From: a virus
Strand: one strand, 5' to 3'
DNA length: 44,752 nucleotides
IMG/VR virus record: IMGVR_UViG_3300050821_009885
Location: 1 to 44,752 of that record
The notes under the pieces are model-generated. The model was not told where the DNA came from. It searched no databases and saw only the letters and a program-made list of their open reading frames with translations. Every line of letters starts with the position of its first letter. The first letter of the stretch is position 1. Positions 1-44,752 of this stretch are shown here, in pieces. The position numbers and the translations under genes were made by a program.

Positions 1-1
1 G

Positions 2-226
2 GCCCGGTGGTTGGGATCGGTGGCTCTATTGGGCTACGGCGACGGCTACGGCGACGGCTACGGCGACGGATACGGCGACGGCAACGGCTACGGCGACGGC
101 TCCGGCTACGGCGACGGCTACGGCTACGGCTTCGGCAACGGCTACGGCGACGGCAACGGCTCCGGCGACGGATACGGCGACGGATACGGCTACGGCTACG
201 GCGACGGCGACGGAGGCTCAACATGA
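2..226 (+). CDS. C-terminus of a Gly-X repeat protein (5' end off window)
   Basis: The frame is open from the first bases. It reads a short hydrophobic stretch (about residues 4-10) and then nearly 60 residues in which Gly alternates with Tyr, Asp, Asn, Ser or Phe, ending GGST. It stops at 224-226, and that stop overlaps the ATG of the next gene in the ATGA arrangement used throughout this genome. This supports the frame over the Arg-rich frame on the same strand. Gly codons vary only at the third base, mostly GGC with some GGA. The start and the rest of the protein lie outside the window. The function is unknown. Low-complexity Gly/Tyr/Asp tails are flexible and can mediate assembly, but nothing here shows a role. 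Confidence 0.5.
   Translation, partial: ARWLGSVALLGYGDGYGDGYGDGYGDGNGYGDGSGYGDGYGYGFGNGYGDGNGSGDGYGDGYGYGYGDGDGGST
32..216 (+). repeat. Imperfect hexanucleotide tandem repeat (GGC + NAC/TCC/TTC)
   Basis: About thirty units of six bases follow each other: GGC or GGA, then TAC, GAC, AAC, TCC or TTC. A 12-base subunit GGCTACGGCGAC recurs several times. The repeat codes for the Gly-X tail of the partial gene. Its position at the edge of the window suggests that assembly stopped in or near it. Confidence 0.8.
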
Positions 227-536: not shown

Positions 537-729
537 TCACCACTGGGCCTTCGTGGGCACCCATCGCCAGCGCTGTACCGAGTGCAAGACCATCCGCAGC
601 GAGGATGGCGACGGCTCGGAAGCGTGGTCCTACTGCGCTCCGGGCGAGCCGCCCGCCACGCGCGATCCGGGATGCTACCAGAGACTTCCGGATGCCCCTG
701 GCGCAGCGTTCGTGGATGGTGAGCGATGA
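526..729 (+). CDS. Small protein with possible zinc knuckle (67 aa)
   Basis: GTG start at 526 inside the end of the previous gene. The N-terminal half has HHWAFVGTHRQRCTEC followed later by Cys residues in SYCAPG and GCYQ, which could form a small metal-binding site. The rest is Pro/Ala/Gly-rich. The stop overlaps the next ATG (726-729). No family recognised. Confidence 0.45.
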   Translation: MASNHHWAFVGTHRQRCTECKTIRSEDGDGSEAWSYCAPGEPPATRDPGCYQRLPDAPGAAFVDGER

Positions 730-998
730 AGCGCGAGGCGCCCGAAGAGGCGAACGAGCGCGGGTACGTCTCGGGCCACCGTGCCGCGACGATGTACATG
801 ATCCGTCACCTACTCCGAGAGATTCTACCGGAGCCGCATGCGAGCCCGGAAGTCACTCTTGCGCGCCTGGTGACCGAGCGAGAGCAAACCGTCTTGACCC
901 TCCGGTCAATCTGCGAGGAGTTCGGCGACAACGATTGGCCCGAGAACCTCCACATGCCAGACATCATCGAGAAGCACCTAGCGAGGCACCTGCGATGA
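726..998 (+). CDS. Hypothetical protein (90 aa)
   Basis: Starts with an ATGA overlap. The product is mainly helical and charged, with no signal peptide or membrane segment. It sits in the chain of small coupled early genes between 223 and 1531. Not recognised. Its balanced composition and overlaps on both sides support it as a true gene. Confidence 0.55.
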   Translation: MKREAPEEANERGYVSGHRAATMYMIRHLLREILPEPHASPEVTLARLVTEREQTVLTLRSICEEFGDNDWPENLHMPDIIEKHLARHLR

Positions 999-1180
999 GC
1001 ACCTCGAGCCGCACCATCAAGCTCGCCCGCGAGCGCCTGTGCCTGGCCGCCCTGGCGTACGCGCACCACTCGAGCGGCGGCACTGCGCCCCTGGAGGCCG
1101 GGAGCTTGCTGCGCATCAGGGCCAAGGAGTACGCCCAGGCCATCACGGAGTCCGTCCACGAGCTGGAGAAGGTGACCTAG
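995..1180 (+). CDS. Hypothetical protein (61 aa)
   Basis: ATG at 995 overlaps the preceding stop. A longer reading starting at 605 is only a shadow of upstream genes. The protein begins MSTSSRTIKLARERLCLAAL and is predicted mostly helical (LLRIRAKEYAQAITESVHELEKV). No motif recognised. Confidence 0.5.
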   Translation: MSTSSRTIKLARERLCLAALAYAHHSSGGTAPLEAGSLLRIRAKEYAQAITESVHELEKVT

Positions 1181-1181
1181 G

Positions 1182-1385
1182 GTGAAACTCCCCGACGCCA
1201 CGCTGGCCGATCTCCCCTTTGCCGAGGACCCACCGCTCGATGCTGCTCCCATCGTCCACAAGCGCAAGCTCGTGCGCCCGTGGAAGGAAGCCCACCAGCC
1301 CGCATCGCAGCCGAAGCGACCGAGCTGGATGAACCTTCGAGCTGGGCAGCACCCGAAGCTGCCGCTGCGACCACCGGGGAAGTGA
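1182..1385 (+). CDS. Hypothetical protein (67 aa), basic, Pro-rich
   Basis: GTG start one base after the previous stop. The N-terminal third is acidic (LADLPFAEDPPLDAAP) and the C-terminal two thirds are Lys/Arg/Pro-rich. No domain recognised. The stop overlaps the next ATG (TGATG at 1383-1387). Confidence 0.45.
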   Translation: MKLPDATLADLPFAEDPPLDAAPIVHKRKLVRPWKEAHQPASQPKRPSWMNLRAGQHPKLPLRPPGK

Positions 1386-1531
1386 TGAAACTCCTAGCCC
1401 TCGAGATCGCGCGCCTCGACATCTACCACGGGTGGCGCGATGGCCTATGCTACAGGCGATGGCCCGGGAGGCTCGTGGTGCTGCTGGAGATCGAGCCGCT
1501 CCTCTTCGGGCAGGTGGGGATGGTCTCGTGA
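1385..1531 (+). CDS. Hypothetical protein (48 aa)
   Basis: ATG at 1385 shares its A with the previous stop. The short product MKLLALEIARLDIYHGW... has a hydrophobic strand near the end (LVVLLEIEPLLFG). Function unknown. The stop overlaps a GTG in the GTGA pattern at 1528. Confidence 0.4.
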   Translation: MKLLALEIARLDIYHGWRDGLCYRRWPGRLVVLLEIEPLLFGQVGMVS

Positions 1532-1716
1532 GGTGCGAGCGGTGCGGCGCTACCTTGCCGCGCCACTACCCGCCGTGCAACCCAACCAGGCGCTCAGGAT
1601 TCCCATCCAGCGCGCGATGGTCTCGGGTGGTGTCTCCGTCCGCTGCACCTCGAGCAAGAGCCACGGCACCCCCCAGGCGTGGCACCACGAGCGCCAGTGC
1701 TCCTGCGCCTCGGTGA
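1528..1716 (+). CDS. Doubtful CxxC protein truncated at a module boundary
   Basis: GTG at 1528 overlaps the preceding stop as GTGA, and the product begins VRCERCGATLPRHYPPC, a believable zinc-binding start. From about 1590 onward the reading is Ser/Ala/Pro/Arg-rich and looks like the shadow of the opposite-strand nuclease gene (1550-1990), which it overlaps by more than 160 bases. Either it is a small gene whose end was lost where the two operons meet, or it is not a gene. Confidence 0.25.
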   Translation: MRCERCGATLPRHYPPCNPTRRSGFPSSARWSRVVSPSAAPRARATAPPRRGTTSASAPAPR

Positions 1717-1990
1717 GCTTGGTGAAGCGCTTCAACTCGATCTCCCCGTGCCATCCGCCTCGGCCGATCACGTAGATGTCCGCCTGGCCCTTGATGGCCG
1801 CACGGAACACTCTGTCTTCGACCTTGATGACGCCCGTTGACCTCTTGAAGAGACGATGGTCTCGCAGCTCGAGCGATGTGCGAGCCATCAGGGCCGAGCC
1901 GTAGTCGGCCTCTAGGGTGCGCTTCACGTGAAGCCGCACCGCTGCGAACGTGTGAACGGCTTGGGCTTCCGACGGCTGCCACCGCGCCAT
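1550..1990 (-). CDS. VRR-NUC family nuclease
   Basis: The 146-residue reading from the ATG at 1990 carries the signature of the VRR-NUC branch of PD-(D/E)XK enzymes: GQADIYVI with D71, then HGEIELK with E83/E85 and K87, then a helix with Q96 and W99. These nucleases cut or trim branched or free DNA ends, and stand-alone versions are common in phage replication modules. A start at 2077 is possible but adds an atypical His/Arg-rich tail and overlaps the next gene more. Last gene of the minus-strand replication operon; its C-terminus meets the plus-strand genes head-on. Confident on family, less so on start. Confidence 0.8.
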   Translation of the reverse strand: MARWQPSEAQAVHTFAAVRLHVKRTLEADYGSALMARTSLELRDHRLFKRSTGVIKVEDRVFRAAIKGQADIYVIGRGGWHGEIELKRFTKLTEAQEHWRSWCHAWGVPWLLLEVQRTETPPETIARWMGILSAWLGCTAGSGAAR

Positions 1991-2148
1991 GGACACCCGC
2001 GACACGCGATGCAGTGCGTGTTGCGCTCGATCTTCGCTCGGGTCTGCGAGGTGGCGAACAGGCGCCCGCATCGGCACCGAACCCTGTAGACGCGAGCGAT
2101 TCCGCTGGCTCCCGATCCTCTGCGGATCACTTCGACTATTTCACTCAT
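1924..2148 (-). CDS. Small zinc-ribbon-like protein (74 aa)
   Basis: Begins MSEIVEVIRRG and contains CRCGRLF followed 17 residues on by HCIACRG, a four-Cys ribbon arrangement. The C-terminal part is Arg/Lys-rich. The ATG at 2148 overlaps the stop of the upstream gene (2145) and the 3' end overlaps the nuclease start by about 67 bases. Probably a small nucleic-acid or metal-binding protein; not recognised further. Confidence 0.5.
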   Translation of the reverse strand: MSEIVEVIRRGSGASGIARVYRVRCRCGRLFATSQTRAKIERNTHCIACRGCPWRGGSRRKPKPFTRSQRCGFT

Positions 2149-2435
2149 CGCACGGTCGCTCTCTGCCGACTGGCCTCAATGCGGCACTGCTGGCACGTGC
2201 CCATGTTCTTGGACTCCTCATAGTCCACCTTGAACTTGCGTCCGCACAGTGCCGCCCACACACCCGGAAGCCTGTAGTGGTACGCGGGCATCCCGTCTCC
2301 GAAGTCCAGCCCGATGACGCGCACCACGGGACCATCGAGCTCCACGATCTTCGGAGCGTGATTCTCCTGCGGCATCAGGACTTCGGGCCAGATCGCGCAG
2401 GTTCGATCGGCCGCGCTGCTGTTGGGTTTCTTCAT
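2145..2435 (-). CDS. Hypothetical protein (96 aa)
   Basis: Coupled by ATGA overlap to the helicase gene upstream (2432) and to the zinc-ribbon gene downstream. Contains CQQCR near the C-terminus and an upstream LCGRKF, so a Cys4-type metal site is possible. The middle (VRVIGLDFGDGMPAYHYRLPG) is not recognised. Operon position suggests an accessory role in phage DNA metabolism. Confidence 0.55.
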   Translation of the reverse strand: MKKPNSSAADRTCAIWPEVLMPQENHAPKIVELDGPVVRVIGLDFGDGMPAYHYRLPGVWAALCGRKFKVDYEESKNMGTCQQCRIEASRQRATVR

Positions 2436-3988
2436 AGGTCACTCACGTCGAAGTACATGGGGTCATCCGGTTCTTCCGGTGCGGGATGCTCCGGTGCTGA
2501 CTTACGCTCGTTCCAAAACGCCTTCTCGCGCTCGTGCTTGCTGATCCGAGCCTTCCACTCTTCATCCTTGAAGTGGTCCGCCTTCACGCTCTGGCTCCAT
2601 GCCCAGCTCGGCCAGTCGCCGTACTTCTCCTTGTACTTGGCCGAGGCGTAGCCTGGCTTGAAACCGCGCTTGCGGGCGATATCCACCTGCGAGTCAAAGT
2701 AGGCGCGCTTGGGGTCCGCGCTCTTCTCCTTCTGGATCGCCTGGTCGATGCGCTCGAGCACGCCGTCGCTCTTCTTCACCTCGCGATGGGCGACCGGCGC
2801 CACGTGGCCGCACACGGGGCACGGGCTGCCCGTCACGTACGCGTAGCACGCGGGGCACGTACGGTAGCGCGTCTCCGTCTTGCGCTTCGCGGTGCCGTCC
2901 AGAGACCACTCGCGGTCCTCGTGGGGGAGACCATGGCGGTCGACGTTGCCCGCATGGTCGAGGATGACCGGCACGTCGCTCGGGTGCTCGGCGCATGGGA
3001 ACCGGCAGATCGAGCAGTACGGCCGCAAGATACGTCCCGCGCACTGCATCCAGAGCGTGAGAGACTTGGTGGGACGAGCCATCACGCAGCACTTCACGGG
3101 TGGGCAATCCCATCCTTCTGTGCACACGCCCACGTTGCATAGGACGGTGATGGCTCCAGTAGCCAGGTCTAGGAGCAACTGGTCTCGCTCCACGTCGGGT
3201 GTGCTGCCATCGAGATGCGCCGCTCGCACGCCGGCTTCCTTGAACCGAGCCACCAGTTCTCGGCTGTGATCAATACCGACCGCGAAGACGACCGTTTGCC
3301 TTCCCCCTGCGTGCTTCTGCCATTCCGTGACGACATCGCCCACCACCTCCATCATCGCGCTCTCGAGCTGTCCTTCGTGATAGTCGCCCGCCACCGTGCG
3401 CACCTTCGACAGGTCGGGCGCCTTCTTCGGGGCGTACACGATGGGCGCCACAATGGCTCCGGCATCGATCAGCTCCGAGTAGCCGGCGCTGTGCACCATC
3501 GCGTCGAAGTGCTCTTTCAGCGGCTTGCCGTCGAGGCGACAGGGTGTGGCGGTGAGACCGAGAACGGTGGCCTTCGCGTAGCGACCCAGTACTTGCTCAT
3601 AAGAGGCCCCAGGTACCCGGTGAGCCTCGTCGACCACAACCAGGTCGGCCCGCGGCAAGTCGCGACGTACCAGTGTCTGCACCGTCCCCACTTGAACAGG
3701 ACTCGATGGGTCGGTTCGCTCATCGTCGCCTCTCATGATGCCAGGTGTAATGCCCACCCGCTGCAGGTGGACGTAAAACTGCGAGATGAGCTCCTTGCGG
3801 TGCCCGATGACGAGCACACGGTCTCCGAGCTCCACGGCCCGAGCGATCATCGCAGAGGCCATCACGCTCTTGCCGCTGCCCGTGGGAGCCGTGAGGATGA
3901 TGCGCCGGTGACCGGACCTGCGCGCCTGGCGAGCGTCGTCTATCGCGCGGTGCTGATAGCTACGAAGAACGGGCGGCACGTCTCTCAC
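2432..3988 (-). CDS. SF2 DEAH-box helicase with C-terminal zinc ribbon
   Basis: A 518-residue superfamily 2 helicase. Motif I is APTGSGKS (34-41), motif II DEAH (120-123), motif III TATP (146-149), and motif VI QCAGRILRP (315-323). After the RecA-like domains come CSICRFPC (about 325-332) and a ribbon CPAC...CPVC (378-393), followed by a charged tail that could contact DNA. It resembles the type III restriction/XPB-like helicases of phage replication modules, which unwind or translocate on duplex DNA. No linked methylase or nuclease domain is seen, so a restriction role is unlikely. The ATG at 3988 lies inside the end of the HNH gene (29-base overlap), and the stop overlaps the next ATG. Confidence 0.9.
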   Translation of the reverse strand: MRDVPPVLRSYQHRAIDDARQARRSGHRRIILTAPTGSGKSVMASAMIARAVELGDRVLVIGHRKELISQFYVHLQRVGITPGIMRGDDERTDPSSPVQVGTVQTLVRRDLPRADLVVVDEAHRVPGASYEQVLGRYAKATVLGLTATPCRLDGKPLKEHFDAMVHSAGYSELIDAGAIVAPIVYAPKKAPDLSKVRTVAGDYHEGQLESAMMEVVGDVVTEWQKHAGGRQTVVFAVGIDHSRELVARFKEAGVRAAHLDGSTPDVERDQLLLDLATGAITVLCNVGVCTEGWDCPPVKCCVMARPTKSLTLWMQCAGRILRPYCSICRFPCAEHPSDVPVILDHAGNVDRHGLPHEDREWSLDGTAKRKTETRYRTCPACYAYVTGSPCPVCGHVAPVAHREVKKSDGVLERIDQAIQKEKSADPKRAYFDSQVDIARKRGFKPGYASAKYKEKYGDWPSWAWSQSVKADHFKDEEWKARISKHEREKAFWNERKSAPEHPAPEEPDDPMYFDVSDL

Positions 3989-4415
3989 ACGTCCAGTTCT
4001 TGTACCGCCAGATGCGGGAGATCATCACTTGGCTCACCCCGAACCTATCGGCAACAAACTGTTGCGACGTACCGAAAACTCGCATGGCCCGTATCGCGTC
4101 CACGTCGTCAGCCGTGAGCTTGATCGGACCTCCGCGAAGGCATCGGCCTTTGCGATCCATGTCGCGCATGTTGTCCAAGTGAGACCCTAGCCACAGATGG
4201 TCAGGGTTCACGCACCTGGGAACGTCGCACGAGTGGCAAACATCCACGCCTTGCGGGATGGGCCCACGGTGAATCATCCACGAGACTCGGTGCGCGAGCC
4301 ATTGGCCCATGGACCTGATGGTCCCGTATCCGCACGCGTTCACGTGCAACCGCCAGAGCCAGCACCCGGACACCGGGTCTACATCGTACTTCTTCGCGAA
4401 GGCGTCCGGGTGCAT
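3960..4415 (-). CDS. HNH homing endonuclease with C-terminal helix-turn-helix
   Basis: 151 residues. The N-terminal part has DPVSGCWLW and GYGTI, then the HNH core: H42 in AHRVSW, CHSCD (60-64), CVNPDHLWLG (68-77) and DNMRDMDRKGR. This is the layout of free-standing phage HNH enzymes. The C-terminus (KLTADDVDAIRAM...FGVSQVMISRIW, from 99) is a DNA-binding helix-turn-helix that would give site choice. It cuts DNA at a specific site and usually spreads its own gene. It lies between the SSB-like and helicase genes and overlaps the helicase start, as expected for a later insertion. A GGAGAA ribosome site precedes the ATG at 4415. Confidence 0.88.
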   Translation of the reverse strand: MHPDAFAKKYDVDPVSGCWLWRLHVNACGYGTIRSMGQWLAHRVSWMIHRGPIPQGVDVCHSCDVPRCVNPDHLWLGSHLDNMRDMDRKGRCLRGGPIKLTADDVDAIRAMRVFGTSQQFVADRFGVSQVMISRIWRYKNWTCERRAARSS

Positions 4416-4426
4416 GGCTTCTCCAG

Positions 4427-4879
4427 CTAAAAGCGCGGTTCCAAGTCAGGGTCCACCGGAGCCGCGGCCTTGGCCTTCGCCGCGAGCATGGCGGCTTTGA
4501 TGCGCTCCTTGGCGCCGCTCATCTCCGCCACGTTCATGGGCACCATACGGCTGGCGCCATTGATCCACTTCAGGCGCGGGCGGGTTCCCTTGCTGCCGTC
4601 GGCCTTGTCGTACTCTTCCTCTTCGGTCACGCCCTGAAACGGCTGCTTGGTGACGCTGGCGGGATCGTCTCCGTCGTAGCCCATGATGCCCAGGCTCTCG
4701 GAGGTGCGCGCCGCGGTCTTATCCGACAGCCACCCGATCCACTCGATGGTCTGCCCCACGTTGGGGCCATCGACGTACGAGCAGATGACCTTGACGCCGG
4801 GAGTCTCCTTCTCCGGGCTCTTGACGAACTCCAGGGGCCCTGCGGCCTTCATCGTGAACGTTCCTGATGCGATGCTCAT
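4427..4879 (-). CDS. Probable single-stranded-DNA-binding-like protein
   Basis: The gene begins MSIASGTFT at 4879, overlapping the stop of the Sak4-like gene as ATGA. A longer in-frame reading back to 5233 is a Gly/Arg-rich shadow. The 150-residue product has a predicted beta-rich N-terminal half (VKVICSYVDGPNVGQTIEWIGWLS), the kind of fold used by OB-type phage ssDNA-binding proteins, then an acidic segment, an Ala/Lys helix and an acidic/Pro end (PVDPDLEPRF). Its position right after a Sak4-like ATPase matches phage modules where an SSB partners the recombinase. Family assignment is by context and fold impression, not a clear motif. Confidence 0.55.
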   Translation of the reverse strand: MSIASGTFTMKAAGPLEFVKSPEKETPGVKVICSYVDGPNVGQTIEWIGWLSDKTAARTSESLGIMGYDGDDPASVTKQPFQGVTEEEEYDKADGSKGTRPRLKWINGASRMVPMNVAEMSGAKERIKAAMLAAKAKAAAPVDPDLEPRF

Positions 4880-5727
4880 GCAGACACCTTCTTCAGCAAT
4901 GCACTCTCCACTGCGACGAGGCGAGGGACATCCCCGCTCGCCTTCTCGATGAACTCTTGGGCCTTCTTCCTGTCCTCGTCGGTCTTGGCGAGCGAGAGGA
5001 TGCTCTTGACCACCGCCTCCGCCGGGCGCCTGTAGCTCGCCACAGCCGATGAGAAGTCCTCCCACCGCAGCGGCAACGCCTTGGGCAGACCCCACCGATT
5101 CTTGGCGTCGTAGCCCGTCCCCGCCTGCGTGTAGAGGAACCGCTCGCCCGTCATCACCGCGCGCCCCTCGTACATCCCCGCCTCGTAGTTGGCGAACAAG
5201 ACCGCATCCGCCCACTGCGCCGTGGCCGCCCAAGGCTTGGCGTTCATGGCGGGGATGAACTTGGCGTAGCTTCCGAGCGTGGGGTCTTTCACTTCCTTGC
5301 TCTGCACGTGCGCGACCAGGATGACCGCGCGCCCCTTGTCGCTAGCCCCCTCGAGGATGAACAGCAGCTCGCGCCACTTGACCTCCAGCGCCGCGTGCCC
5401 CTGGCCCCAGTCGAAGTCCGCCAGCGTCTTCTTCTTGCCCTCCTGGCAGACGAGGGCCGCGGCCTGCACCTCGAGCTTGTCGGCGGTGTCGATGACCACC
5501 GCCTGGTGGTCTCCGGGACCCGAGCAGGCTTCGCGAATGAGCTCCAGGCTCGCCTTCCAGTTGTCCGGCGCGCGCACGCGGTCGACGCCGATCTCCTCTA
5601 GGCCACGCTCGTAGTCGAGCGCCAGCGCGCGAGGGTGAGCGCACGCGAAGGTGGACTTGCCGATGCCGTGCACGCCGTAGATGCACGCGCGGATCGCCGG
5701 CGAGGTGCGGCCTTTGATGATGTTCAT
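4876..5727 (-). CDS. Sak4-like RecA-fold ATPase (AAA_24 type)
   Basis: A 283-residue P-loop ATPase. Walker A is GVHGIGKST (from residue 18) and Walker B is VVIDT (77-81), followed by a conserved region ending VILVAHVQSKE that matches the phage AAA_24/Sak4 group. These proteins are reduced RecA-like recombinases that anneal or pair single-stranded DNA during phage recombination, often with a partner SSB. Here the SSB-like gene is directly downstream and a PD-(D/E)XK nuclease upstream, the expected partners. Coupled by ATGA overlaps on both sides. Confidence in the family is high; strand-pairing activity is inferred. Confidence 0.82.
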   Translation of the reverse strand: MNIIKGRTSPAIRACIYGVHGIGKSTFACAHPRALALDYERGLEEIGVDRVRAPDNWKASLELIREACSGPGDHQAVVIDTADKLEVQAAALVCQEGKKKTLADFDWGQGHAALEVKWRELLFILEGASDKGRAVILVAHVQSKEVKDPTLGSYAKFIPAMNAKPWAATAQWADAVLFANYEAGMYEGRAVMTGERFLYTQAGTGYDAKNRWGLPKALPLRWEDFSSAVASYRRPAEAVVKSILSLAKTDEDRKKAQEFIEKASGDVPRLVAVESALLKKVSA

Positions 5728-5906
5728 ATCTTCATATCCGTCCGCAGCTCTTGCCCGCAGTCCACGCAGTAGAAGACGCGACAGTTCGCGTACTCTCTAT
5801 GCGTCTCGGTCTCGTGAGGACAACCGGACTGGATCATGCTCTCCAGGTTCTCCACCGCAAGCTTTAGCTCTCGCATCGCTTGGCCAATCTCCTCCCACCT
5901 ACTCAT
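5724..5906 (-). CDS. Small zinc-binding protein (60 aa)
   Basis: The N-terminal half is an amphipathic helix (WEEIGQAMRELKLAVENLESMIQ). The C-terminal half has CPHETETH and then FYCVDCG, a Cys/His set for one zinc ion. ATGA overlap to the Sak4-like gene downstream and an 8-base overlap with the nuclease gene upstream show it belongs to the operon. Function unknown. Confidence 0.6.
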   Translation of the reverse strand: MSRWEEIGQAMRELKLAVENLESMIQSGCPHETETHREYANCRVFYCVDCGQELRTDMKI

Positions 5907-6861
5907 CTACAGTCCCAGCTTCATCGCTGGCCTCCAATCCATGCAGGTTCGGTCCGAAGGCCGCATCGTTGTCCAGTCGCTCCATGCCCCAGCACACCTC
6001 GAAATAGCCGCACTGCCGGCCAAACGAGTGGCACGAGGCGGGGTTGCGGGGAGCGTGAACGGAGTGAGCGGCTCTCCACGAGGAGATGCCCGTAGCTCCG
6101 TAGATGAGCCGTAAGGCATCCAGCGACTGCACGTCTTGGGCAAACGCCGCGTGCTCGTGCTCAAGGCGCACCACGTACGCGCGCGCGAAATACTTGTCCG
6201 GCTCCGCGGACATCGCTGCGAGGCAGCGAGCTACGAGCTCGTCGTCGGTCTCCTCGTTGAGCTTCCCAGCGCGGAGTTTGCGGAAGGAGGGCTTGCGGAT
6301 GACGTCGTAGAGCACCTTGGCTCCCGGAAACGCAGCGGCGTACATGCTGACCTGCAGGTTCGTTTGAGAGACCTGCCGCCAGTAGAGCGAGCCCGGCGAG
6401 ATGTCACTGCTGGTCGTTTTGTGTTCGCAGATCGTCAGCCCGTCGAATATGTCTCCCACGCGACGCTCCCAGCCGAGGACGTCCACGTTCCCGGCGCACT
6501 CGACGCCACCCACGTTGGTAAGGAACGGCTCCTCCACCAGGCAGTCGAGCAGGTGCGGCCTCTCCCACCTCGCCGCGTACCCAAGGCAGCAAGCGCGCGC
6601 GATGGGGTCGTACGGAAGGATGTTGTGCCCCTGAGCCGCCATAAACTCTGGCGACATGGACCACCACGCGTTGAGCCACCGATGCACGCTCGTCCCGCGC
6701 GTCAGCGCCTCAGGACGCACGAGAGGCACGCGGCGGTCGATGTAGGCGTGCAACCATTCTCGAGGGCAACGCTGCAGGCAGGTAGCTTCGCTCGCATGCA
6801 AAGGAGGCATGGGGCGTCTGGGGCCACCGCCGGGCCCAGGGGCCGGAGGGGAGGGGGGCAT
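5899..6861 (-). CDS. PD-(D/E)XK exonuclease (RecB/Cas4-like)
   Basis: 320 residues. The nuclease core shows GTSVHRWLN (H60), GNVDVLG (D127) and ICEHKTTSS (E146, K148), the D...ExK order of the RecB/Cas4 family. Cys residues at 28 and 32 and a C-terminal set CHSFGRQCGYFEVC could hold an iron-sulfur cluster, as in AddB and Cas4 proteins. It probably resects DNA ends to supply single strands for the Sak4-like ATPase. The ATG at 6861 is preceded by GAGAAAGG. A second Met at 6810 would drop a Pro/Gly-rich tail but has no visible ribosome site. First gene of the leftward operon. Confidence 0.82.
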   Translation of the reverse strand: MPPSPPAPGPGGGPRRPMPPLHASEATCLQRCPREWLHAYIDRRVPLVRPEALTRGTSVHRWLNAWWSMSPEFMAAQGHNILPYDPIARACCLGYAARWERPHLLDCLVEEPFLTNVGGVECAGNVDVLGWERRVGDIFDGLTICEHKTTSSDISPGSLYWRQVSQTNLQVSMYAAAFPGAKVLYDVIRKPSFRKLRAGKLNEETDDELVARCLAAMSAEPDKYFARAYVVRLEHEHAAFAQDVQSLDALRLIYGATGISSWRAAHSVHAPRNPASCHSFGRQCGYFEVCWGMERLDNDAAFGPNLHGLEASDEAGTVDE

Positions 6862-6896
6862 CGAGGGGACCTTTCTCAGTCAGACAGGAAAACAGG

Positions 6897-6947
6897 GCCT
6901 CAGCTCGCCGGAATCGTGGGGGACGATGGCACCCGACGAGCTGAGGC
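6897..6947. repeat. 11-bp inverted repeat, possible operator
   Basis: GCCTCAGCTCG (6897-6907) is matched by its exact reverse complement CGAGCTGAGGC (6937-6947), with 29 bases between. It lies just upstream of the leftward nuclease start. It may be a protein-binding site or an RNA hairpin in the leader of the leftward transcript. Confidence 0.6.
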
Positions 6948-6953
6948 GAAAAG

Positions 6954-7004
6954 ACGGTACAACGGTCCCAGGATGGGTGCAACCTTTTTGTTGCTACTTG
7001 TTGC
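6954..7004. repeat. Short direct repeats, possible RHH operator
   Basis: ACGGT occurs at 6954-6958 and 6962-6966 (period 8), and TTGTTGC at 6988-6994 and 6998-7004 (period 10). RHH repressors commonly bind closely spaced direct or inverted short repeats. These lie 38 to 88 bases before the RHH start at 7042. Binding is inferred only. Confidence 0.35.
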
Positions 7005-7041
7005 GAATTGTCCCAACCCATGAGACAGTAGCTAACTCATC

Positions 7042-7200
7042 ATGGGCAGACCTAGAAAAAAGCTCTTCTTGACCACAGTGGTGGACAGGGACCTGTACGA
7101 GAAGGCCAAGCGGGTGGCCAAGTTCGAGGACCGCACTGTGGCCGCGATGCTCAGGCGGATGATCGCCGAGCTGCCGGAGCCCGAGCTCAAGGCGTCTTAG
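7042..7200 (+). CDS. Ribbon-helix-helix regulator (52 aa)
   Basis: The protein reads MGRPRKKLFLTTVVDRDLYEK and onward. It has a basic arm, a strand (LFLTTVVD) and two helices separated by the turn FEDRTVAA, ending in LRRMIAELP, a typical CopG/Arc-type fold. Such proteins bind DNA as dimers through the strand. It opens the rightward unit and stops two bases before the GTG of the RepA-like ATPase, so it probably controls that gene and perhaps the divergent operon. No clear Shine-Dalgarno site is visible before the ATG. Confidence 0.72.
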   Translation: MGRPRKKLFLTTVVDRDLYEKAKRVAKFEDRTVAAMLRRMIAELPEPELKAS

Positions 7201-7202
7201 CG

Positions 7203-8264
7203 GTGGCCATCCCCACCCCGTCGGAGGGGACACCCTCGCCGGTCACGCTCGTCAAGCAGAGGCCCGAGCGCCCTACGGGCCTGAACATCGTCGGAGCCGA
7301 CGATCTCTTCGCACCACTGCCTCCGGTCGAGTGGATGTGCCGGTCTCTGCTGCTGGCCCCTGGCGCTCCCACGATGTTCGCCGGCTACGGCTACAGCGGC
7401 AAGAGCATCGCGCTGCAGTCGCTGGCGATGTCAGTCGCTGGAGGCATCGTGCTCTGGGGAACGTTTGGGGTCCGGCGAGGTCGAGTCCTGCACCTCGACT
7501 ACGAGCAAGGCAGGCGTATCACAGCCGAACGCTACCAGCGGATGGCCTTCGCGGCGGGTCTAGACCCTGCGGGCCTCTCCGGGCAGCTCGATGTGGGCAT
7601 CCTGCCTAGCGTTGGACTCACAGCGGACCTGCTCTCGAGAGTGGCCGACGGGAGGGTGCTCGTGGTGGTCGATTCCTGGCGCGCAGCGCACCCTGGAATC
7701 GACGAGAATAGCAGCGACGTCCGTAAGACCCTGGACGCGATGGGAGTCGCCAGCGAGCGAACTGGAGCGATGTTCGTGGTGCTGCACCATACCCGCAAGC
7801 CGTCCAAGGACGCCGCCGGTGGAAGCAAGATGGCCATCCGGGGGAGCAGCGGGTTCTACGACGGGTGCCAGACGATCTACCTGTTCGACGGAGAGACCGT
7901 AGGTCGACCCACCGTCACCCTCGAGAAGGACCGCATCAGCGGCCAGTCGATGGAGCCGTTTGTTCTGGTGGTCGAGGACACCGACGACGGTGCGGGACTG
8001 AGAGTACGCCATGAAAGTATGGAGGAACCGGTGAAAGAACATCCCGCCGAGACGTTTGCCAAAACGAGTGCCCTGGTCGTGGAGCTTCTCAAGAGGTCGC
8101 CAGGCATGAGCGCCAGCAAGCTCGCCGAGGTCACCGAGAAGCGAAAGGCCCACGTGCTCGCCGTCATCCAGTCGCTCATCGCGGAAGGCGAACTCGTCCA
8201 GGTGGGCAAAGGACCCATGACCCGCCTCTACACCAAGGGCGCGCAGCCGGAGGCTCCGTTTTGA
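7203..8264 (+). CDS. RepA-like AAA ATPase/helicase with C-terminal winged helix
   Basis: 353 residues. The N-terminal ATPase domain has Walker A GYGYSGKS (61-68), VLHLDYEQG (about 95), a Walker B strand VLVVVDSW (about 150) and LHHTRKP with a sensor His (about 194), as in RepA/DnaB-related hexameric helicases of plasmids and phages. The last 80 residues (SALVVELLKRSPGMSASKLAEVTEKRKAHVLAVIQSLIAEGELV) form a winged helix that could read DNA. The GTG start lies 2 bases after the RHH stop. The gene ends four bases before a set of GGAACC-type repeats, so it is the likely initiator helicase for that origin. Confidence 0.82.
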   Translation: MAIPTPSEGTPSPVTLVKQRPERPTGLNIVGADDLFAPLPPVEWMCRSLLLAPGAPTMFAGYGYSGKSIALQSLAMSVAGGIVLWGTFGVRRGRVLHLDYEQGRRITAERYQRMAFAAGLDPAGLSGQLDVGILPSVGLTADLLSRVADGRVLVVVDSWRAAHPGIDENSSDVRKTLDAMGVASERTGAMFVVLHHTRKPSKDAAGGSKMAIRGSSGFYDGCQTIYLFDGETVGRPTVTLEKDRISGQSMEPFVLVVEDTDDGAGLRVRHESMEEPVKEHPAETFAKTSALVVELLKRSPGMSASKLAEVTEKRKAHVLAVIQSLIAEGELVQVGKGPMTRLYTKGAQPEAPF

Positions 8265-8267
8265 ATC

Positions 8268-8450
8268 GGAACGGTTCCACCGGTTCCCTTATGACGCACC
8301 GGAACCTTCGGAACCGGAGTGCCAATCGGTTCCTCGGTTCCGGGCCCCCCATAGGGGGCCGGAGGAACTGATGGGCACCGGCGGACCGATAACACGGTGC
8401 GTTATGTTTTATAATACTTTTCACTACATATATATACATGAAAATAGGGC
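8268..8450. other. Probable replication origin: iteron-like repeats plus AT-rich unwinding stretch
   Basis: Between 8268 and 8343 the motif GGTTCC or its complement GGAACC occurs repeatedly: GGAACGGTTCC (8268-8278), CCGGTTCC (8280-8287), CCGGAACC (8299-8306), CGGAACCGG (8309-8317), CGGTTCC (8327-8333) and CGGTTCCGG (8335-8343). A hairpin with arms GGCCCCC/GGGGGCC follows (8343-8360). Then 8401-8447 is about 80% A+T in an otherwise GC-rich window and contains a perfect TATAAT (8410-8415). Iterons next to an AT-rich stretch, directly after a RepA-like helicase gene, is the classic layout of an initiator-dependent origin. No DnaA box was recognised. Confidence 0.7.
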
Positions 8451-8507
8451 CGTGCCATCCATCCCCCTCCCCGCAACTCGAGCCGCAAAAACGATGGCAC
8501 GCGTGTC

Positions 8508-8536
8508 TTGACCAAAAGGGGCAGCAATGGTATCTA
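8508..8536 (+). promoter_or_regulatory. Candidate sigma-70-type promoter into the 98-bp repeat
   Basis: TTGACC (8508-8513) matches the -35 box in five of six positions. After a 17-base spacer comes TATCTA (8531-8536), a weak -10 box inside the repeated segment. Transcription would begin near 8543, almost on the ATG of the RHH reading at 8544, so that message could be nearly leaderless. Prediction only. Confidence 0.35.
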
Positions 8537-8624
8537 CGAGCTCATGAGCCATCGAGAGGACCGAGTGCAGCTCAACGTATGGGTGAGTAGGGGTATGTGT
8601 GAGGAATTGAGGAGAGAGGGGGAG
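8527..8624 (+). repeat. 98-bp perfect inverted repeat, copy 1
   Basis: Bases 8527-8624 are identical to the reverse complement of 44655-44752, the last 98 bases of the window, and the two diverge immediately after. The segment carries the start and first 27 codons of an RHH gene. At the other copy that gene is intact. At this copy it runs into unrelated sequence. Confidence 0.95.
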
Positions 8625-8687
8625 AGACCCGCCCCTTCTCCAGCACCGTCCGCCTCCGCGGCCCATCCAAGCGCCTCGACGCGATGA
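8544..8687 (+). pseudogene. RHH protein start fused to unrelated sequence
   Basis: The first 27 codons (MSHREDRVQLNVWVSRGM...) are identical to the intact RHH gene at 44565-44735. After the repeat ends at 8624 the frame continues for 20 codons rich in Pro, Ala and Ser and stops at 8685-8687. The second helix of the RHH fold is lost, so the product should not work. It is a chimera from recombination, or an assembly join. Confidence 0.6.
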
Positions 8688-8800
8688 TCGACACGCTGCG
8701 AGCGGCCAAGGGGCTTCCGAGGTCGAGCGATACGCTGATGGCGAAGGTGGGCGAGGTGATGCAGCAGGGGCGGGAGAGGAAGGAGCGGGAAGGAAGATGA
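8603..8800 (+). pseudogene. RHH gene lacking its start
   Basis: In another frame from the chimera, 8603-8800 is open. From about 8640 it encodes STVRLRGPSKRLDAMIDTL and onward, a strand plus two helices like the RHH protein at 223-390. There is no ATG, GTG or TTG before the strand. The first usable Met is at 8684, inside helix one. The true 5' end appears to have been replaced by the 98-bp repeat. Its stop overlaps the next ATG (8797), so it was once, or elsewhere is, the first gene of the rightward accessory run. Confidence 0.55.
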
Positions 8801-9018
8801 CGCGAGAAGAGCTGATTGCGACGTTCGCGGTTCAGATGACCGTGGCGCAGATGGCCGACGATGACGGTGCCACGATGATGGCCGTAATCAACAAGCTGAT
8901 CGATGACGCGGAGAGGCGAGGTCGAGACGAGGCAGCGAAAGAACCTCGTCATGGGTGCCTCGGCTGCGCAATGGTCGACGGTAAGTGCCCGCACTGCGGG
9001 AATCAGGCGATGCCATGA
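8797..9018 (+). CDS. Small protein with C-terminal zinc ribbon (73 aa)
   Basis: The N-terminal two thirds are helical and acidic (MTREELIATFAVQMTVAQMADDDGA...). The end has CLGCAMVDGKCPHCG, two CxxC pairs that fit a small zinc site. ATGA overlaps on both sides place it firmly in the coupled run. No known family recognised. Confidence 0.6.
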   Translation: MTREELIATFAVQMTVAQMADDDGATMMAVINKLIDDAERRGRDEAAKEPRHGCLGCAMVDGKCPHCGNQAMP

Positions 9019-10885: not shown

Positions 10886-12223
10886 ATGGCTGACAAGCAT
10901 TACGACTCGTTTCCGGCAGAGATAGTTGCGCTCAAGCGAGACCTCGCCGCAGCCCGCGAGCAGGCGCGGACGGCGGAGGAAAACAGCGATGTCTGCGAAG
11001 GCGCACTCGACATCGCGATGCAGCGCGAAGAGGCCATGCTTCGTCTGTTCGACCCGGACGAGAAGAGAGTCGAAGAGGTGCTCGCCATTCGGGGCAAGTG
11101 CGTGTCCTCGTCTCCGCTGCGTGAGCAGCTCGCCGAACGCGACGCGCGCATCGAAAAGCTCGCCGAGATGTTCGACGAGTCCAGCCCGTGCAATGACGAT
11201 TGCGCATTTGCGGCGATCGCGTCCTGGGTCTTGCCGGAGGACCGGAAGCGGGTGCACGAGATGCGGGACCTGCTTCGCGAACAGCTCGCCGCAGCCCGCG
11301 AGCAGGCGCGGACGGCGGAGCGCAAGTGGCAAGAGTATGAGCGCGACTACATCCTCCCGTGCTTTCGATGGGCCAAGGAGATGGGCTTCGACCTCGAGAA
11401 GCTTGTGCACGAGCGCGCTGGGAAGAACTGCGTCGTGCTGTTCGTAGAGGAGATACGCTCGCAGCTCGCCGCCCGAGACGCGGAGGTTGGATCGTACCGC
11501 ATAGCTTTGGCCGACATCGCGGAGGACTGTGGACCGCTAAAGCCGTACGTGGCGAACGAGGCGCAGGGCGCATTGGCCGGCGTCCTGGCCGTAGCTGAGA
11601 ACGCGTTGCGGGCCTATTCGGACAGGCATCCAGCCTCCCCTCCCACTCCTACGCAGGACCGGAGCGGGAGGGAGGAGGCGGACACCTGTTGCGGGCGCCC
11701 CATGACGACGAATCAGGAGCGCCCTGGATACATGGTCTGCGCGGTGTGCGGAACGCACTGGCCGTTGGCAAAACAGACTGCCCAGCCCGAGCCCGCACCG
11801 GGCGTCAACTCGCCCATCCTCGGTGGCCCCGTCCACATCTCGCCCCCGCCCGATGCCAAGGCCGCGCCGGAGCGAATGACCGTGGCGCGCTACCTGGATG
11901 GCAGCACGTCGCTCTGGGCGGACACCATCGGCTCGGGCTGGAAGGAGCATTACGTCCGCTCCGATCTGCACGCCGCGGCCATCGCCCGCGCTGAGGCGCT
12001 CGAGAAGGCGCTGCGGTCGCTCGTAGACACGCTACCCCGCTGCGACCAGCACCCGGATCGACCGGCGACTCGCGCATGGGTGCGCGGCGCTGGCCGGTAC
12101 TGCGACGAGTGCGGCTTGAAGCATGAGCCGAATCCGGTGCACGAGTACCCACGCGCGCAGCCTCTCCGCAACGCCATCGCCCTCCTCGACCCTGCCCGTA
12201 CCGGCCCGGAGAAATCGACATGA
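10886..12223 (+). CDS. Large coiled-coil protein with Cys motifs (445 aa)
   Basis: Begins MADKHYDSFPAEIVALKRDLAAAREQARTAEE. The first 230 residues are rich in heptad-like Ala/Glu/Arg helices typical of coiled coils and include a duplicated block LAAAREQARTAE. CCGRPMTTN...CAVCG (about 265-290) suggests a zinc ribbon, and CDQHPDR...YCDECG (about 395-415) a second. The region between is Pro-rich. A composite accessory protein with no known family. ATG follows the last GGAK junction by three bases and the stop overlaps the next ATG. Confidence 0.6.
   Translation: MADKHYDSFPAEIVALKRDLAAAREQARTAEENSDVCEGALDIAMQREEAMLRLFDPDEKRVEEVLAIRGKCVSSSPLREQLAERDARIEKLAEMFDESSPCNDDCAFAAIASWVLPEDRKRVHEMRDLLREQLAAAREQARTAERKWQEYERDYILPCFRWAKEMGFDLEKLVHERAGKNCVVLFVEEIRSQLAARDAEVGSYRIALADIAEDCGPLKPYVANEAQGALAGVLAVAENALRAYSDRHPASPPTPTQDRSGREEADTCCGRPMTTNQERPGYMVCAVCGTHWPLAKQTAQPEPAPGVNSPILGGPVHISPPPDAKAAPERMTVARYLDGSTSLWADTIGSGWKEHYVRSDLHAAAIARAEALEKALRSLVDTLPRCDQHPDRPATRAWVRGAGRYCDECGLKHEPNPVHEYPRAQPLRNAIALLDPARTGPEKST
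10943..10978 (+). repeat. 36-bp direct repeat, copy 1
   Basis: Identical to 11285-11320. Both lie in the coiled-coil gene and encode the same LAAAREQARTAE segment in frame, indicating an internal duplication or gene conversion. Confidence 0.9.
11285..11320 (+). repeat. 36-bp direct repeat, copy 2
   Basis: Second exact copy of 10943-10978, 342 bases downstream. Because 342 is a multiple of three, both copies are read in the same frame. Recombination between them would delete 114 codons cleanly. Confidence 0.9.
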
Positions 12224-14965: not shown

Positions 14966-15711
14966 GCCGCCAATCCGTATAGGCTCGTGGTGTACGCGGA
15001 CCACTGTGCCCACTCTTGTGTCGAGAGCGCGTGATTGATGATGGCCCACTCGCACGCGTCGAGTGTGGTCTCGAATGCCGCCGTTCCGTTGAGCGTCCAG
15101 TTGTCCACGCTGAGCGCGGTGGAGAATGCCCCACCGCCTCCGTCAACCCCGGACAATCGCAAGCGCGCGGTCGCTCCGTCGAGTCTCACCGAGTAGACGC
15201 CAGGGGCGCCCGATGCGGTGGTGGGGATGGTGGAGGAGCCGACTACGCCGTTCGAGTAGAACGTCTCGGTAGTGGCCGCGGCCTGGAACACAGTGAACGC
15301 GCCGGACTGCGTGTCGTTGCCACCGGTCGGGAACATCGAGAAGATGCGACCCGACGCGGCGAAGGTAGGGTTGCACACGCAGATGAACGTGATGGTCGAC
15401 AGCGAGTAGTGACTCGCGAGCGTCCCGAGGAGCAGCTTCGAACCCGTAGCGCTCGTGCGCATGCCCGGCTTGCCGTTGATCGCCGAGGCCACGAAGAGTG
15501 GCTGATTGCCGGCCGTGTTCTGCTGGAAGGTGTTGCTGGCGTTCGCGCGGTCCGGGACGGAGACGACGTTGCCGCCGTTCAGGACCACGCCCGCGTCCGA
15601 GAGCTTTCCCCACGAGATGAGGCCGGATTGCGATGCCGGGGTCCACGCTCCGCTTCCACCTCCGTTGCCTCCAGCGGTTACGGCCAACCCAAGTGAGAGA
15701 GCGAGGCTCAT
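14962..15711 (-). CDS. Lectin-like (concanavalin/LamG fold) tail protein
   Basis: 249 residues. After a Gly-rich start comes WTPASQSGLISWGKLSDAGVVLNGGNVVSVPDRA and a run of beta strands ending LDACEWAIINHALSTQEW. This is the pattern of LamG/concanavalin-like domains in phage fibres, with the typical late ...EWAIINHALS element. It probably binds surface glycans or assists the spike encoded just upstream, to which it is coupled by an ATGA overlap (15708-15711). Host receptor role is inferred. Confidence 0.65.
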   Translation of the reverse strand: MSLALSLGLAVTAGGNGGGSGAWTPASQSGLISWGKLSDAGVVLNGGNVVSVPDRANASNTFQQNTAGNQPLFVASAINGKPGMRTSATGSKLLLGTLASHYSLSTITFICVCNPTFAASGRIFSMFPTGGNDTQSGAFTVFQAAATTETFYSNGVVGSSTIPTTASGAPGVYSVRLDGATARLRLSGVDGGGGAFSTALSVDNWTLNGTAAFETTLDACEWAIINHALSTQEWAQWSAYTTSLYGLAA

Positions 15712-18329
15712 ACGTCCGCCGTGACCCTTTCCCAGCCTGCGCCGTTGCTCTGCACCCAGGCCCTCTTGCCGGCTGCAATCGTGACCGTCGCTCCCGACGA
15801 GGCGCCGAACGTGATGGCGTCAGTAGGCGGGGCCACCACAACCCTCTCGTATCCGGCCGCGAAGGTTGGGGCGACGACGGGCGTCGTCCCGGTCAGGTGG
15901 CTATTGGTGTCGGTGATGACGATGGTGCGGCACGAGAAGTCTGGGCCCGTCGGAGAGGCCGCAGCGTACCACTGGCACGTGATGTTCCCGGAGCCGGTGG
16001 CATTCCAGGTCGTACGCCCGTTGGTCTCGAGCGGCAGCACCATGACTGGTGCCGTCCCATCGCTCCACGGCACCGGGTTCTCGAGGCCCTGGCCCTGGTA
16101 AGGCTGCTCGAGCACGATGGTGGCCGACGGGGCCTGCGGGCAGCTCACGAGCGCCGTCACCCCGGTGGGAATGCTGGCCATGTCGAAATTGAAGCGGTGG
16201 CCTAGCCCGGAGTCGATGAGCAGCGCGCATCCGCTCGCAGCCGTGCCAGCGGCCACGAACAGGCCGCCACCGGTCCACGAGATGTTGTTGCAGTTGTTGA
16301 ACACTGCGAGCGTATCGAGGCCGCCACCGCCGCTTTCCGTTCCGATCCCGCAGTTGAGAAACTGGCTGCCCTGCGCGTCATTGCTGTCGACGATCCCGAA
16401 GGGCCCGTTGACCGTGTTGATGAGCAGGTCGCGGACCATGCATGCGCCCGAGCCATTGAGGATGATGGCCGCCGTGCCCTGGACAGGACCTGCGAATAGC
16501 GGGTTGTCCGTAACGCCTGCCCCGCTTGTAATCGTCCGGCAGGAGCCCCACGAATGCGAACAGTTGCCCGCCTGGTACTTCTGCGTCACGAACGTCGGGC
16601 GGATGTCCTTGCCGTAATAGCTATTGTTGGTCCGCGTAATTCCCTTGCGGGTCGTAAACGTACAGTCGAATGTGTTCGTATTCTGCGAGCACTCTGCGCG
16701 GATGCCTGCGAATGGCGTGAAATTGAGATTCTTGAAGGTGCAGACCGGTCCGTTTTCCTTGGTGGTGATAAAGACGTTTTGGAACATCAGCAGGCTGTTG
16801 CACGGAGCGCCCAGCGTCACGTTGAAGTCTGTCGGGTGCCCGCACGCGCCAACAACGCCGGTAGCCCCCGTCAGGTAAGCCGGGTTGAAGGAGACGAGCA
16901 GATCCGTATTCGAGTCGCAGTCGCCGACGAGGAACTCCGTCGAAGGCAGGTTGCCCGTGCGGGCGGTGTTGCTCTTGCGGAAGTTGCCCCATGCCATCGG
17001 GGGGCCTTCGTCGGTGGACCCGTACGGCCATAGGCCCAGGGCGCGCGAGCTGGCCCCCATGATGAAGTCTTCCCACGGGTGCTGGACAATCGCCCCCGTT
17101 CCCCCCGTGCCGGATACACTGATCGTGGGCGATCCGCCCCCCGCAGCCGCGGCAAACCGTAGCGTCGTGCCGTCCCAGGTGAGCCGGGCTGAGTAGATCG
17201 TGTTTTGGGCAAAAGCCCCGCTGCTGCCCGTGGTGCACATGACCGTGCCGGAGCCGCCCGCAACCGAAAGGACAGCCGTAATATCGAATGAGCCGGAACT
17301 TGCCGAAAAGAGCACGCTGAGCGCCTCGTGCAGCGGCGAATTGTTGGTCTTGCGTCCTCCGCACCAAGGGAATTGGCTGTCGGTTCCGATCGTGCCCGTG
17401 ACCTCGAACGTCCACTCGAGCGTGAGCGCGGTCATGCCGTTCAGGCTCGCGAACGGCGATTCGCTGAGGAATAGAAACGGGAACCCTCCGCTCGCCGCAG
17501 AGCCGCCGATCTTCACCAGGTAGAAGCCGCTCGTGTGCACGTACTGCATGGCAAAGAAGGCCGTGGCCGGGCAGATGACGAAGGCCTCGCCCACGAACCC
17601 GCCGCCCCAGAACGCCCCCAGGAAAGAGGAGTTGATCGTGGGCGCAAGGTCGTCGCCCTGCACCGTCACTGGGCCGGGCATGTAGATGTGCCGCGTCAGC
17701 AGGTACGTCCCATAGGGCACGTAGAGCGTGAGATTGTTTGCGGACGCGAAGGTGAGAGCCGCGAGGAAGCCGGCGTACGAGTCCGTGTTGCCGGTTGGAT
17801 CGACTCCGGGGAAGGACAGGACGTTGCAGTATTGCCGATGTCCTACGGGTGTATATACGCCATTGGTCAGGACCAGTGTTTGGCCGTTGGCCGGAGCCTG
17901 CCCAGCGAGCGATGCCCCTTGGCCTGCTACCGTGACCACGTCTCCGGCCAGAATGGTCGCGGCTGACGCCGCGTTGACCGCGGCCCCCGTGTTGAGAAGG
18001 AGCAAGTGCGTCGCATCGACCGTGGACGTGTTGATGTAGTACCCGCCGCCTCCGATCGCGATGCTCTGTCCTCCGAGGATGCCCGCGGTGGTACCGACCG
18101 AGACGTTGACCGTCGAGTTGACGGCCGGCTGCGTGAAGTTGAACGTGACCGAGGTTGCGCCGCCGCTGCTGCCGCTGCCTCCGACGATCGTCAGGTTCGT
18201 GGCATCGTTGGCCGGATCGTCCGTGGCCGTGGCGCCCACCACGTTTAGCGCGCTGCGGCGCGGGAGGATGACGCCGTTGTTGATGATCCGGTTGTACTTC
18301 GTCAGCAGGTCCGAGAGAAAGCCAGCCAT
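15708..18329 (-). CDS. Tail spike with pectate-lyase-like beta-helix (873 aa)
   Basis: The N-terminal 60 residues (MAGFLSDLLTKYNRI...RRSALNVVGATATDDPAN) resemble virion-attachment ends of phage fibres. After a Thr/Ser/Gly-rich connector, CNVLSFPGVDPTGNTDSYAGFLAAL...LYVPYGTYLL (about 170-215) is the start of a pectate-lyase-3 type beta-helix. A lectin-like insert follows (EWTFEVTGTIG..., about 305-400), then more helix rungs with many N/T/G and Cys residues, and a small C-terminal domain. Such spikes bind and often cleave host polysaccharide, so this is a candidate depolymerase. No catalytic residues can be named. Transcribed leftward, opposite to the main structural genes. Confidence 0.75.
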   Translation of the reverse strand: MAGFLSDLLTKYNRIINNGVILPRRSALNVVGATATDDPANDATNLTIVGGSGSSGGATSVTFNFTQPAVNSTVNVSVGTTAGILGGQSIAIGGGGYYINTSTVDATHLLLLNTGAAVNAASAATILAGDVVTVAGQGASLAGQAPANGQTLVLTNGVYTPVGHRQYCNVLSFPGVDPTGNTDSYAGFLAALTFASANNLTLYVPYGTYLLTRHIYMPGPVTVQGDDLAPTINSSFLGAFWGGGFVGEAFVICPATAFFAMQYVHTSGFYLVKIGGSAASGGFPFLFLSESPFASLNGMTALTLEWTFEVTGTIGTDSQFPWCGGRKTNNSPLHEALSVLFSASSGSFDITAVLSVAGGSGTVMCTTGSSGAFAQNTIYSARLTWDGTTLRFAAAAGGGSPTISVSGTGGTGAIVQHPWEDFIMGASSRALGLWPYGSTDEGPPMAWGNFRKSNTARTGNLPSTEFLVGDCDSNTDLLVSFNPAYLTGATGVVGACGHPTDFNVTLGAPCNSLLMFQNVFITTKENGPVCTFKNLNFTPFAGIRAECSQNTNTFDCTFTTRKGITRTNNSYYGKDIRPTFVTQKYQAGNCSHSWGSCRTITSGAGVTDNPLFAGPVQGTAAIILNGSGACMVRDLLINTVNGPFGIVDSNDAQGSQFLNCGIGTESGGGGLDTLAVFNNCNNISWTGGGLFVAAGTAASGCALLIDSGLGHRFNFDMASIPTGVTALVSCPQAPSATIVLEQPYQGQGLENPVPWSDGTAPVMVLPLETNGRTTWNATGSGNITCQWYAAASPTGPDFSCRTIVITDTNSHLTGTTPVVAPTFAAGYERVVVAPPTDAITFGASSGATVTIAAGKRAWVQSNGAGWERVTADV

Positions 18330-44564: not shown

Positions 44565-44735
44565 TCACGCCTCCCTCTTGGTGCCTTCCGGCTTGTTGCG
44601 CAGGTACGTGTTGAGCACGCGCCGAACAACATCACTGCGGCTAATCCCCTCCAACTCCCCCTCTCTCCTCAATTCCTCACACATACCCCTACTCACCCAT
44701 ACGTTGAGCTGCACTCGGTCCTCTCGATGGCTCAT
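44565..44735 (-). CDS. Ribbon-helix-helix regulator, intact copy (56 aa)
   Basis: MSHREDRVQLNVWVSRGM opens with a basic arm and the DNA-contact strand RVQLNVWVS, then helix one (CEELRREGELEG), the turn ISRSD and helix two (VVRRVLNTYLRN), a complete RHH fold. Its first 27 codons lie in the 98-bp inverted repeat, and the start is 18 bases from the window's end. It heads the leftward glycan operon and could control it. The other copy of the repeat (8527-8624) carries only the first half of this gene. Confidence 0.75.
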   Translation of the reverse strand: MSHREDRVQLNVWVSRGMCEELRREGELEGISRSDVVRRVLNTYLRNKPEGTKREA

Positions 44736-44752
44736 GAGCTCGTAGATACCAT
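44655..44752 (-). repeat. 98-bp perfect inverted repeat, copy 2 at window end
   Basis: Reverse complement identical to 8527-8624. It ends exactly at the last base of the window, so whether identity continues upstream of the RHH start cannot be seen. On the other side it diverges at the same codon where the chimera at 8624/8625 begins. Confidence 0.95.

What the first reader, a model, noticed from the sequence alone, without database searches (positions are those of the whole stretch)
8527..8624. 98-bp inverted repeat links the origin to a broken RHH gene here and to an intact one at the window end
8527-8624 equals the reverse complement of 44655-44752. The intact RHH gene reads through the repeat into 44654 and beyond. 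At 8624/8625 the same gene is cut and joined to a different RHH gene that lacks its own start. So the natural order may be origin, repeat, intact RHH, glycan operon. Either the 36-kb segment is invertible, or two related phages were joined, or the assembler misjoined. The repeat length is k-1 for a k-mer of 99 and one copy ends exactly at the contig end, which makes an assembly cause serious.
Basis: partly seen in the sequence, partly recalled or inferred. Interest (0 to 1): 0.8.

Follow-up and report, generated by a model that had tools for sequence, protein, structure and literature searches.

The report
Contig-end assembly overlap, not invertible DNA
The 98-base inverted repeat is most likely the overlap a short-read assembler leaves where a phage genome graph forks, so the origin really runs into the intact regulator gene at the contig's far end and the broken gene at 8624/8625 is probably a false or minority join: an ordinary artefact.

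Summary
8527-8624 equals the reverse complement of 44655-44752 over exactly 98 bases. The second copy ends at the last base of the record (the window is a whole linear IMG/VR contig), and homology stops abruptly at 8625 versus 44654. The intact 56-aa gene at the right end scores as one small RHH-like domain only when its repeat half and its right-end half are read together (PHROG 25 bits joined, 15 for one half, none for the other); the 8624/8625 fusion matches nothing. Its likely translation signal lies just outside the repeat, on the origin side. So origin-repeat-RHH1 is probably native. The 8624/8625 junction breaks RHH1 and leaves the next ORF without a start. A toy de Bruijn graph at k=99 leaves exactly 98 bases at such a fork. 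No integrase or resolvase was found, no right flank beyond the second copy is visible, and composition gives no sign of two phages. Most likely a misjoin or library chimera; a real minority recombinant is not excluded, because some reads probably support 8624/8625. Synteny in distant relatives is only mildly supportive (7 to 2, with the relative most alike in module order against). Raw reads would decide; none were available.

The parts
8527..8624 (+). repeat copy 1 (X), internal
   Evidence: 98/98 identical to the reverse complement of 44655-44752
44655..44752 (-). repeat copy 2 (X'), ends at the last base of the contig; best read as a graph overlap continuing natively into 8526 and leftwards
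44565..44735 (-). intact RHH1 gene, 56 aa, RHH/Arc-like; codons 1-27 in the repeat, the rest in B
   Evidence: PHROG_25971 E 3e-5 over residues 10-50; Arc-like repressor 0.0056; Pfam RHH_1 0.0034, sub-threshold
8544..8624 (+). 5' part of RHH1 (27 codons), cut at 8624
   Evidence: the fused 47-aa product matches no family
8624..8625 (.). suspect junction between X and A
   Evidence: breaks RHH1 and leaves the following ORF without a start; codon score of the RHH1 frame continued into A is -17.6 over 21 codons
8627..8800 (+). ORF without a start ('RHH2'), 57 codons; its stop overlaps the next start (ATGA at 8797)
   Evidence: codon log-odds +10.3; the next gene 8797-9018 is +18.2; no family match
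8516..8547 (+). SD-like AAGGGG (8516-8521) and 6-codon leader ORF (8527-8547) overlapping the RHH1 start (8544); the SD lies outside the repeat, on the origin side
   Evidence: sequence; function inferred
8265..8526 (.). origin-like intergenic region (L) with GGTTCC/GGAACC repeats and an AT-rich stretch
   Evidence: sequence and repeats; origin role inferred
1..226 (+). left contig end inside a tandem-repeat ORF (GYGDG repeats) cut at its 5' end; a plausible assembly break

Best explanation
The 98-bp inverted repeat is not a genetic element. It is the overlap left at a fork in a de Bruijn assembly graph. The native sequence is origin (8265-8526), then 8527-8624, then the reverse complement of 44654 downwards: the intact RHH1 gene and the glycan/methyltransferase operon. 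The join at 8624/8625 is non-native, made by the assembler or by a chimeric library molecule (template switching gives mostly inverted joins). The path through the fork was used for 8624/8625, so the other arm ended after its overlap into the shared sequence. The start of the second ORF and the 5' end of the repeat-rich gene at base 1 are both missing, and may face each other across one unassembled gap. Shown: exact repeat, its position at the contig end, one domain across the right-end join, broken ORFs at 8624/8625, and the fork behaviour in a toy graph. Inferred: the cause of the false join, k=99, the gap, and the leader/SD role.
For: Copy 2 ends at the last base of the record. A toy k=99 graph with a fork leaves exactly 98 bases of the shared sequence on the other arm. 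COBRA reports that assemblers break at multiple paths and leave end sequences of maxK, or maxK-1 for IDBA_UD (PMC10914622); CheckV reports terminal repeats at k-mer lengths including 99 (PMC8116208). Among IMG/VR contigs fetched here, several pairs overlap by exactly 127 bases at ends. RHH1 is one domain across the right-end join: 25.3 bits whole, 15.3 for the right half, nothing for the repeat half; the 8624/8625 product matches nothing. The RHH1 SD lies outside the repeat in the origin region. The second ORF is coding-like but has no start. No Phage_integrase or Resolvase match. MDA chimeras are 85% inverted (PMC1855051). In relatives, replication genes (helicase or Sak4) run with the portal in 7 records and against it in 2; running together is what the alternative order gives.
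Against: 98 is even, while SPAdes and MEGAHIT leave an odd k; the assembler used is not known. The assembler extended through 8624/8625, which suggests reads support that join. The relative with helicase and Sak4 in the window's order (G035) has them opposed to the portal, as in the contig as assembled. The RHH1 half inside the repeat scores poorly on codon usage (-5.9 over 27 codons). The family matches to RHH1 are weak, most of them sub-threshold.
Confidence: 0.65

Rival explanations
1. Both junctions exist in the sample: the main phage has origin-RHH1, and a related strain or recombinant subpopulation has the origin joined to the second ORF. The assembler followed one and left the other as a contig end.
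For: The contig passes through 8624/8625, so some reads probably support it. Gene-module orientation varies between relatives (7 co-oriented, 2 opposed).
Against: The junction ruins two ORFs, with no similar sequence at the breakpoint on the A side.
Confidence: 0.25
2. The contig is right as it stands: a natural 98-bp inverted duplication, fixed, with an unknown right flank beyond 44752 and an assembler k below 99, so the contig ends at the repeat boundary.
For: A repeat of exactly 98 bp with k=77 forms its own 98-base node, so a contig could also end at its boundary. G035 has the as-assembled orientation.
Against: If paired reads resolved copy 1, copy 2 should have been resolved into its right flank too. 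100% identity with cut genes would need a very recent event. The RHH1 SD is outside the repeat in the origin region.
Confidence: 0.06
3. A reversible 36-kb inversion switch: the repeat pair recombines, so either the RHH1/glycan operon or the second ORF and structural genes lie behind the origin.
For: Geometry only: an exact inverted repeat bounding a 36,030-bp segment.
Against: No integrase or resolvase family; repeat inside a coding gene; the second ORF has no start behind either copy of the repeat; no right flank seen.
Confidence: 0.04

Closest known systems
Contig-end overlaps of de Bruijn assemblers (COBRA, PMC10914622; CheckV Extended Data, PMC8116208)
   Same: Exact repeat at a contig end, fixed length near a k-mer size, with divergence exactly at the branch base
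   Different: Here the partner is internal and inverted, and the length is 98, not an odd k
Inverted chimeras from multiple displacement amplification (PMC1855051)
   Same: Two distant pieces joined in opposite orientation
   Different: Whether this sample was amplified is unknown, and only one junction is seen
Phage invertible segments such as Mu G and P1 C (own knowledge)
   Same: Inverted repeats bounding a segment and touching coding sequence
   Different: Those are a few kb, lie in tail-fibre genes, keep frames and encode a serine invertase; none was found here
Myxococcus phage Mx4 and IMG/VR myoviruses (kin of the phage itself)
   Same: Portal 35% identical to Mx4 and up to 55% in IMG/VR records
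   Different: No close relative carrying either junction was found

Membership tests
De Bruijn contig-end overlap | one copy ends exactly at the contig end | tested here: met
   copy 2 is 44655-44752 of a 44,752-base record
De Bruijn contig-end overlap | exact identity with an abrupt break at the branch base | tested here: met
   98/98, no homology beyond
De Bruijn contig-end overlap | length equals k or k-1 of the assembler used | tested here: inconclusive
   98 fits k=99 with the k-1 convention; assembler unknown; 127 seen among other contigs
De Bruijn contig-end overlap | read coverage and pairs place the end in the shared node | not testable with these tools
   no reads held
Invertible DNA segment | site-specific recombinase encoded by the element | tested here: not met
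   no PF00589 or PF00239 match in the record; control genomes ring; a host enzyme is not excluded
Invertible DNA segment | both copies flanked by distinct outside sequence | tested here: inconclusive
   no sequence beyond copy 2
Invertible DNA segment | both orientations present | not testable with these tools
   needs reads or PCR
Invertible DNA segment | both orientations leave usable genes | tested here: not met
   second ORF has no start behind the repeat, and the repeat precedes it in both orientations
Inverted terminal repeats | repeat at both termini of the molecule | tested here: not met
   one copy is internal; the left end has no match to it
RHH/Arc-like regulator (RHH1) | profile match over strand and both helices | tested here: inconclusive
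   weak matches spanning the join: PHROG_25971 3e-5 (unnamed), Arc-like 0.0056, Pfam RHH_1 17.7 bits against a 20.5 cut-off

The most novel reading that the evidence does not exclude
A 36-kb segment of a myovirus genome flips between two orientations through a 98-bp repeat inside a regulator gene, changing which operon sits behind the replication origin, using a host recombinase.
Probability: 0.03. Interest if true: 0.6.

Novelty: not a real feature. Interest (0 to 1): 0.12.

Why it matters
It matters mainly as a warning: the gene order, the 'broken' regulator and the orientation of replication against structural genes in this record should not be used as biology until reads confirm 8624/8625. 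Checking contig ends for internal inverted matches is a cheap screen for the same error; a second contig fetched here (L017) shows such a match.

Tried and rejected
Close relatives across the junction: exact patterns from both flanks gave nothing in viral contigs, nor did RHH1 and RHH2 peptides, primase or terminase alone, nor DNA against phages and plasmids. The single-helicase scan gave only generic relatives. A portal alignment found real kin, used for orientation counts only; a look at the gene layout of five of them did not identify orthologues of the junction genes. Strand skew at four-fold sites gave no usable orientation signal. Tetranucleotide distances do not separate 1-8624 from the rest, so two joined phages gained no support. 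Codon scoring favoured the second ORF and its neighbour over a minus-strand ORF across the junction but was inconclusive for the RHH1 half in the repeat. Solved-structure searches found nothing useful. Inverted terminal repeats rejected: one copy is internal.

Full report
Observation. 8527-8624 is identical to the reverse complement of 44655-44752 over exactly 98 bases, the only long inverted repeat in the window. There is no third copy and no weaker homology beyond either edge. The window is an entire linear virus record of 44,752 bases, so copy 2 ends at the contig end. The phage is a myovirus-type caudovirus: terminase, portal, head protease, major head protein, sheath, baseplate J, lysozyme, helicase, Sak4, exonuclease and an AAA primase/helicase-like protein. 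Its portal is 35% identical to that of Myxococcus phage Mx4.

Let L be the origin-like region left of 8527, X the repeat, A the sequence from 8625, and B the reverse complement of 44654 downwards. The contig as assembled reads L-X-A...B'-X'. The question is which of X-A and X-B is native.

Gene evidence favours X-B. The X-B reading gives a 56-aa protein (44735-44565, minus). Joined, it scores 25.3 bits (E 3e-5) against PHROG_25971 over residues 10-50, with weaker hits to Arc-like repressors and Pfam RHH_1 (0.0034, below cut-off). The B half alone falls to 15.3 bits and the X half alone matches nothing; NCBIfam agrees in kind, with only weak matches. The X-A product, 47 aa, matches nothing. An SD-like AAGGGG at 8516-8521, a six-codon leader ORF at 8527-8547 and the overlapping RHH1 start at 8544 put the likely translation signal of RHH1 in L, outside the repeat (sequence; function inferred). 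On the A side, the ORF at 8627-8800 has no in-frame start, though its codon score is positive and its stop overlaps the start of a well-scoring gene, as expected of a real gene that has lost its start at the join. That it is an RHH gene is not supported by any family library.

Graph evidence. In a toy de Bruijn graph built from local pieces and random flanks, a fork at X leaves the B arm ending with exactly k-1 bases: 76, 98 and 126 for k = 77, 99 and 127. A true 98-bp inverted repeat would break symmetrically, and if copy 1 is resolved copy 2 should be resolved into its own right flank; none is seen. Published work describes the same behaviour: COBRA finds maxK (metaSPAdes, MEGAHIT) or maxK-1 (IDBA_UD) end sequences at breaks (PMC10914622), and CheckV finds direct terminal repeats piling up at 55, 77 and 99 bp (PMC8116208). 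In contigs fetched here, end overlaps of exactly 127 recur. The number 98 itself fits only a k=99 assembler with the k-1 convention, and the assembler is not known, so this is consistent rather than proven.

Synteny. In relatives found with a portal alignment, the helicase or Sak4 gene runs with the portal in G004, G009, G013, G018, G034, G042 and G044 and against it in G003 and G035 (portal strands of G042 and G044 taken). In the window as assembled they are opposed; with X-B they run together. This leans towards X-B, but G035, the relative with helicase and Sak4 in the window's order, is on the other side, and all are distant. I count it as weak.

Inversion. No Phage_integrase or Resolvase domain was found in the record, with controls ringing. 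The repeat lies inside a gene, and the second ORF has no start behind the repeat, which precedes it in both orientations. A programmed switch is therefore unlikely. Two joined phages get no support from tetranucleotide composition.

What remains open. The assembler did continue through X-A, so some reads or pairs probably support it: a chimeric library molecule (MDA chimeras are 85% inverted, PMC1855051), a small-k misjoin, or a real minority recombinant. The missing start of the second ORF and the cut 5' end of the repeat-rich gene at base 1 may face each other across one unassembled gap; this is inference. Only reads can separate artefact from a mixed population.

Verdict. The repeat is real in the file but most likely not a feature of the phage. 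Artefact 0.65, real mixed population 0.25, fixed natural repeat 0.06, inversion switch 0.04.

Noticed in passing
L017 (IMGVR_UViG_3300047546_001600), 3' end of the locus: 63-base exact inverted match between the contig end and a place about 470 bases inside it, a similar contig-end pattern.
   Followed up: no
1-226 +: Left contig end lies in a tandem-repeat ORF encoding GYGDG-type repeats, cut at its 5' end; its stop overlaps the start of a small RHH-like-sized ORF at 223-390.
   Followed up: partly
40425-40763 -: Protein matching the PHROG family co-chaperonin GroES (1.6e-7) inside the glycosyltransferase/methyltransferase operon.
   Followed up: no
15708-18329 -: 873-aa protein with a weak pectate-lyase-like match (just under Pfam's cut-off), in a minus-strand block with a lysozyme: a likely tail spike on the strand opposite to the structural genes.
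   Followed up: no
10943-10978 and 11285-11320: Direct repeat of 36 bases inside one ORF (10886-12223) without any PHROG or Pfam match.
   Followed up: no
8272-8405: GGTTCC/GGAACC-rich inverted repeats after the AAA primase-like gene, possibly iterons of an origin.
   Followed up: partly
3960-4415 -: HNH endonuclease with a weak helix-turn-helix match, overlapping the start of the helicase gene.
   Followed up: no
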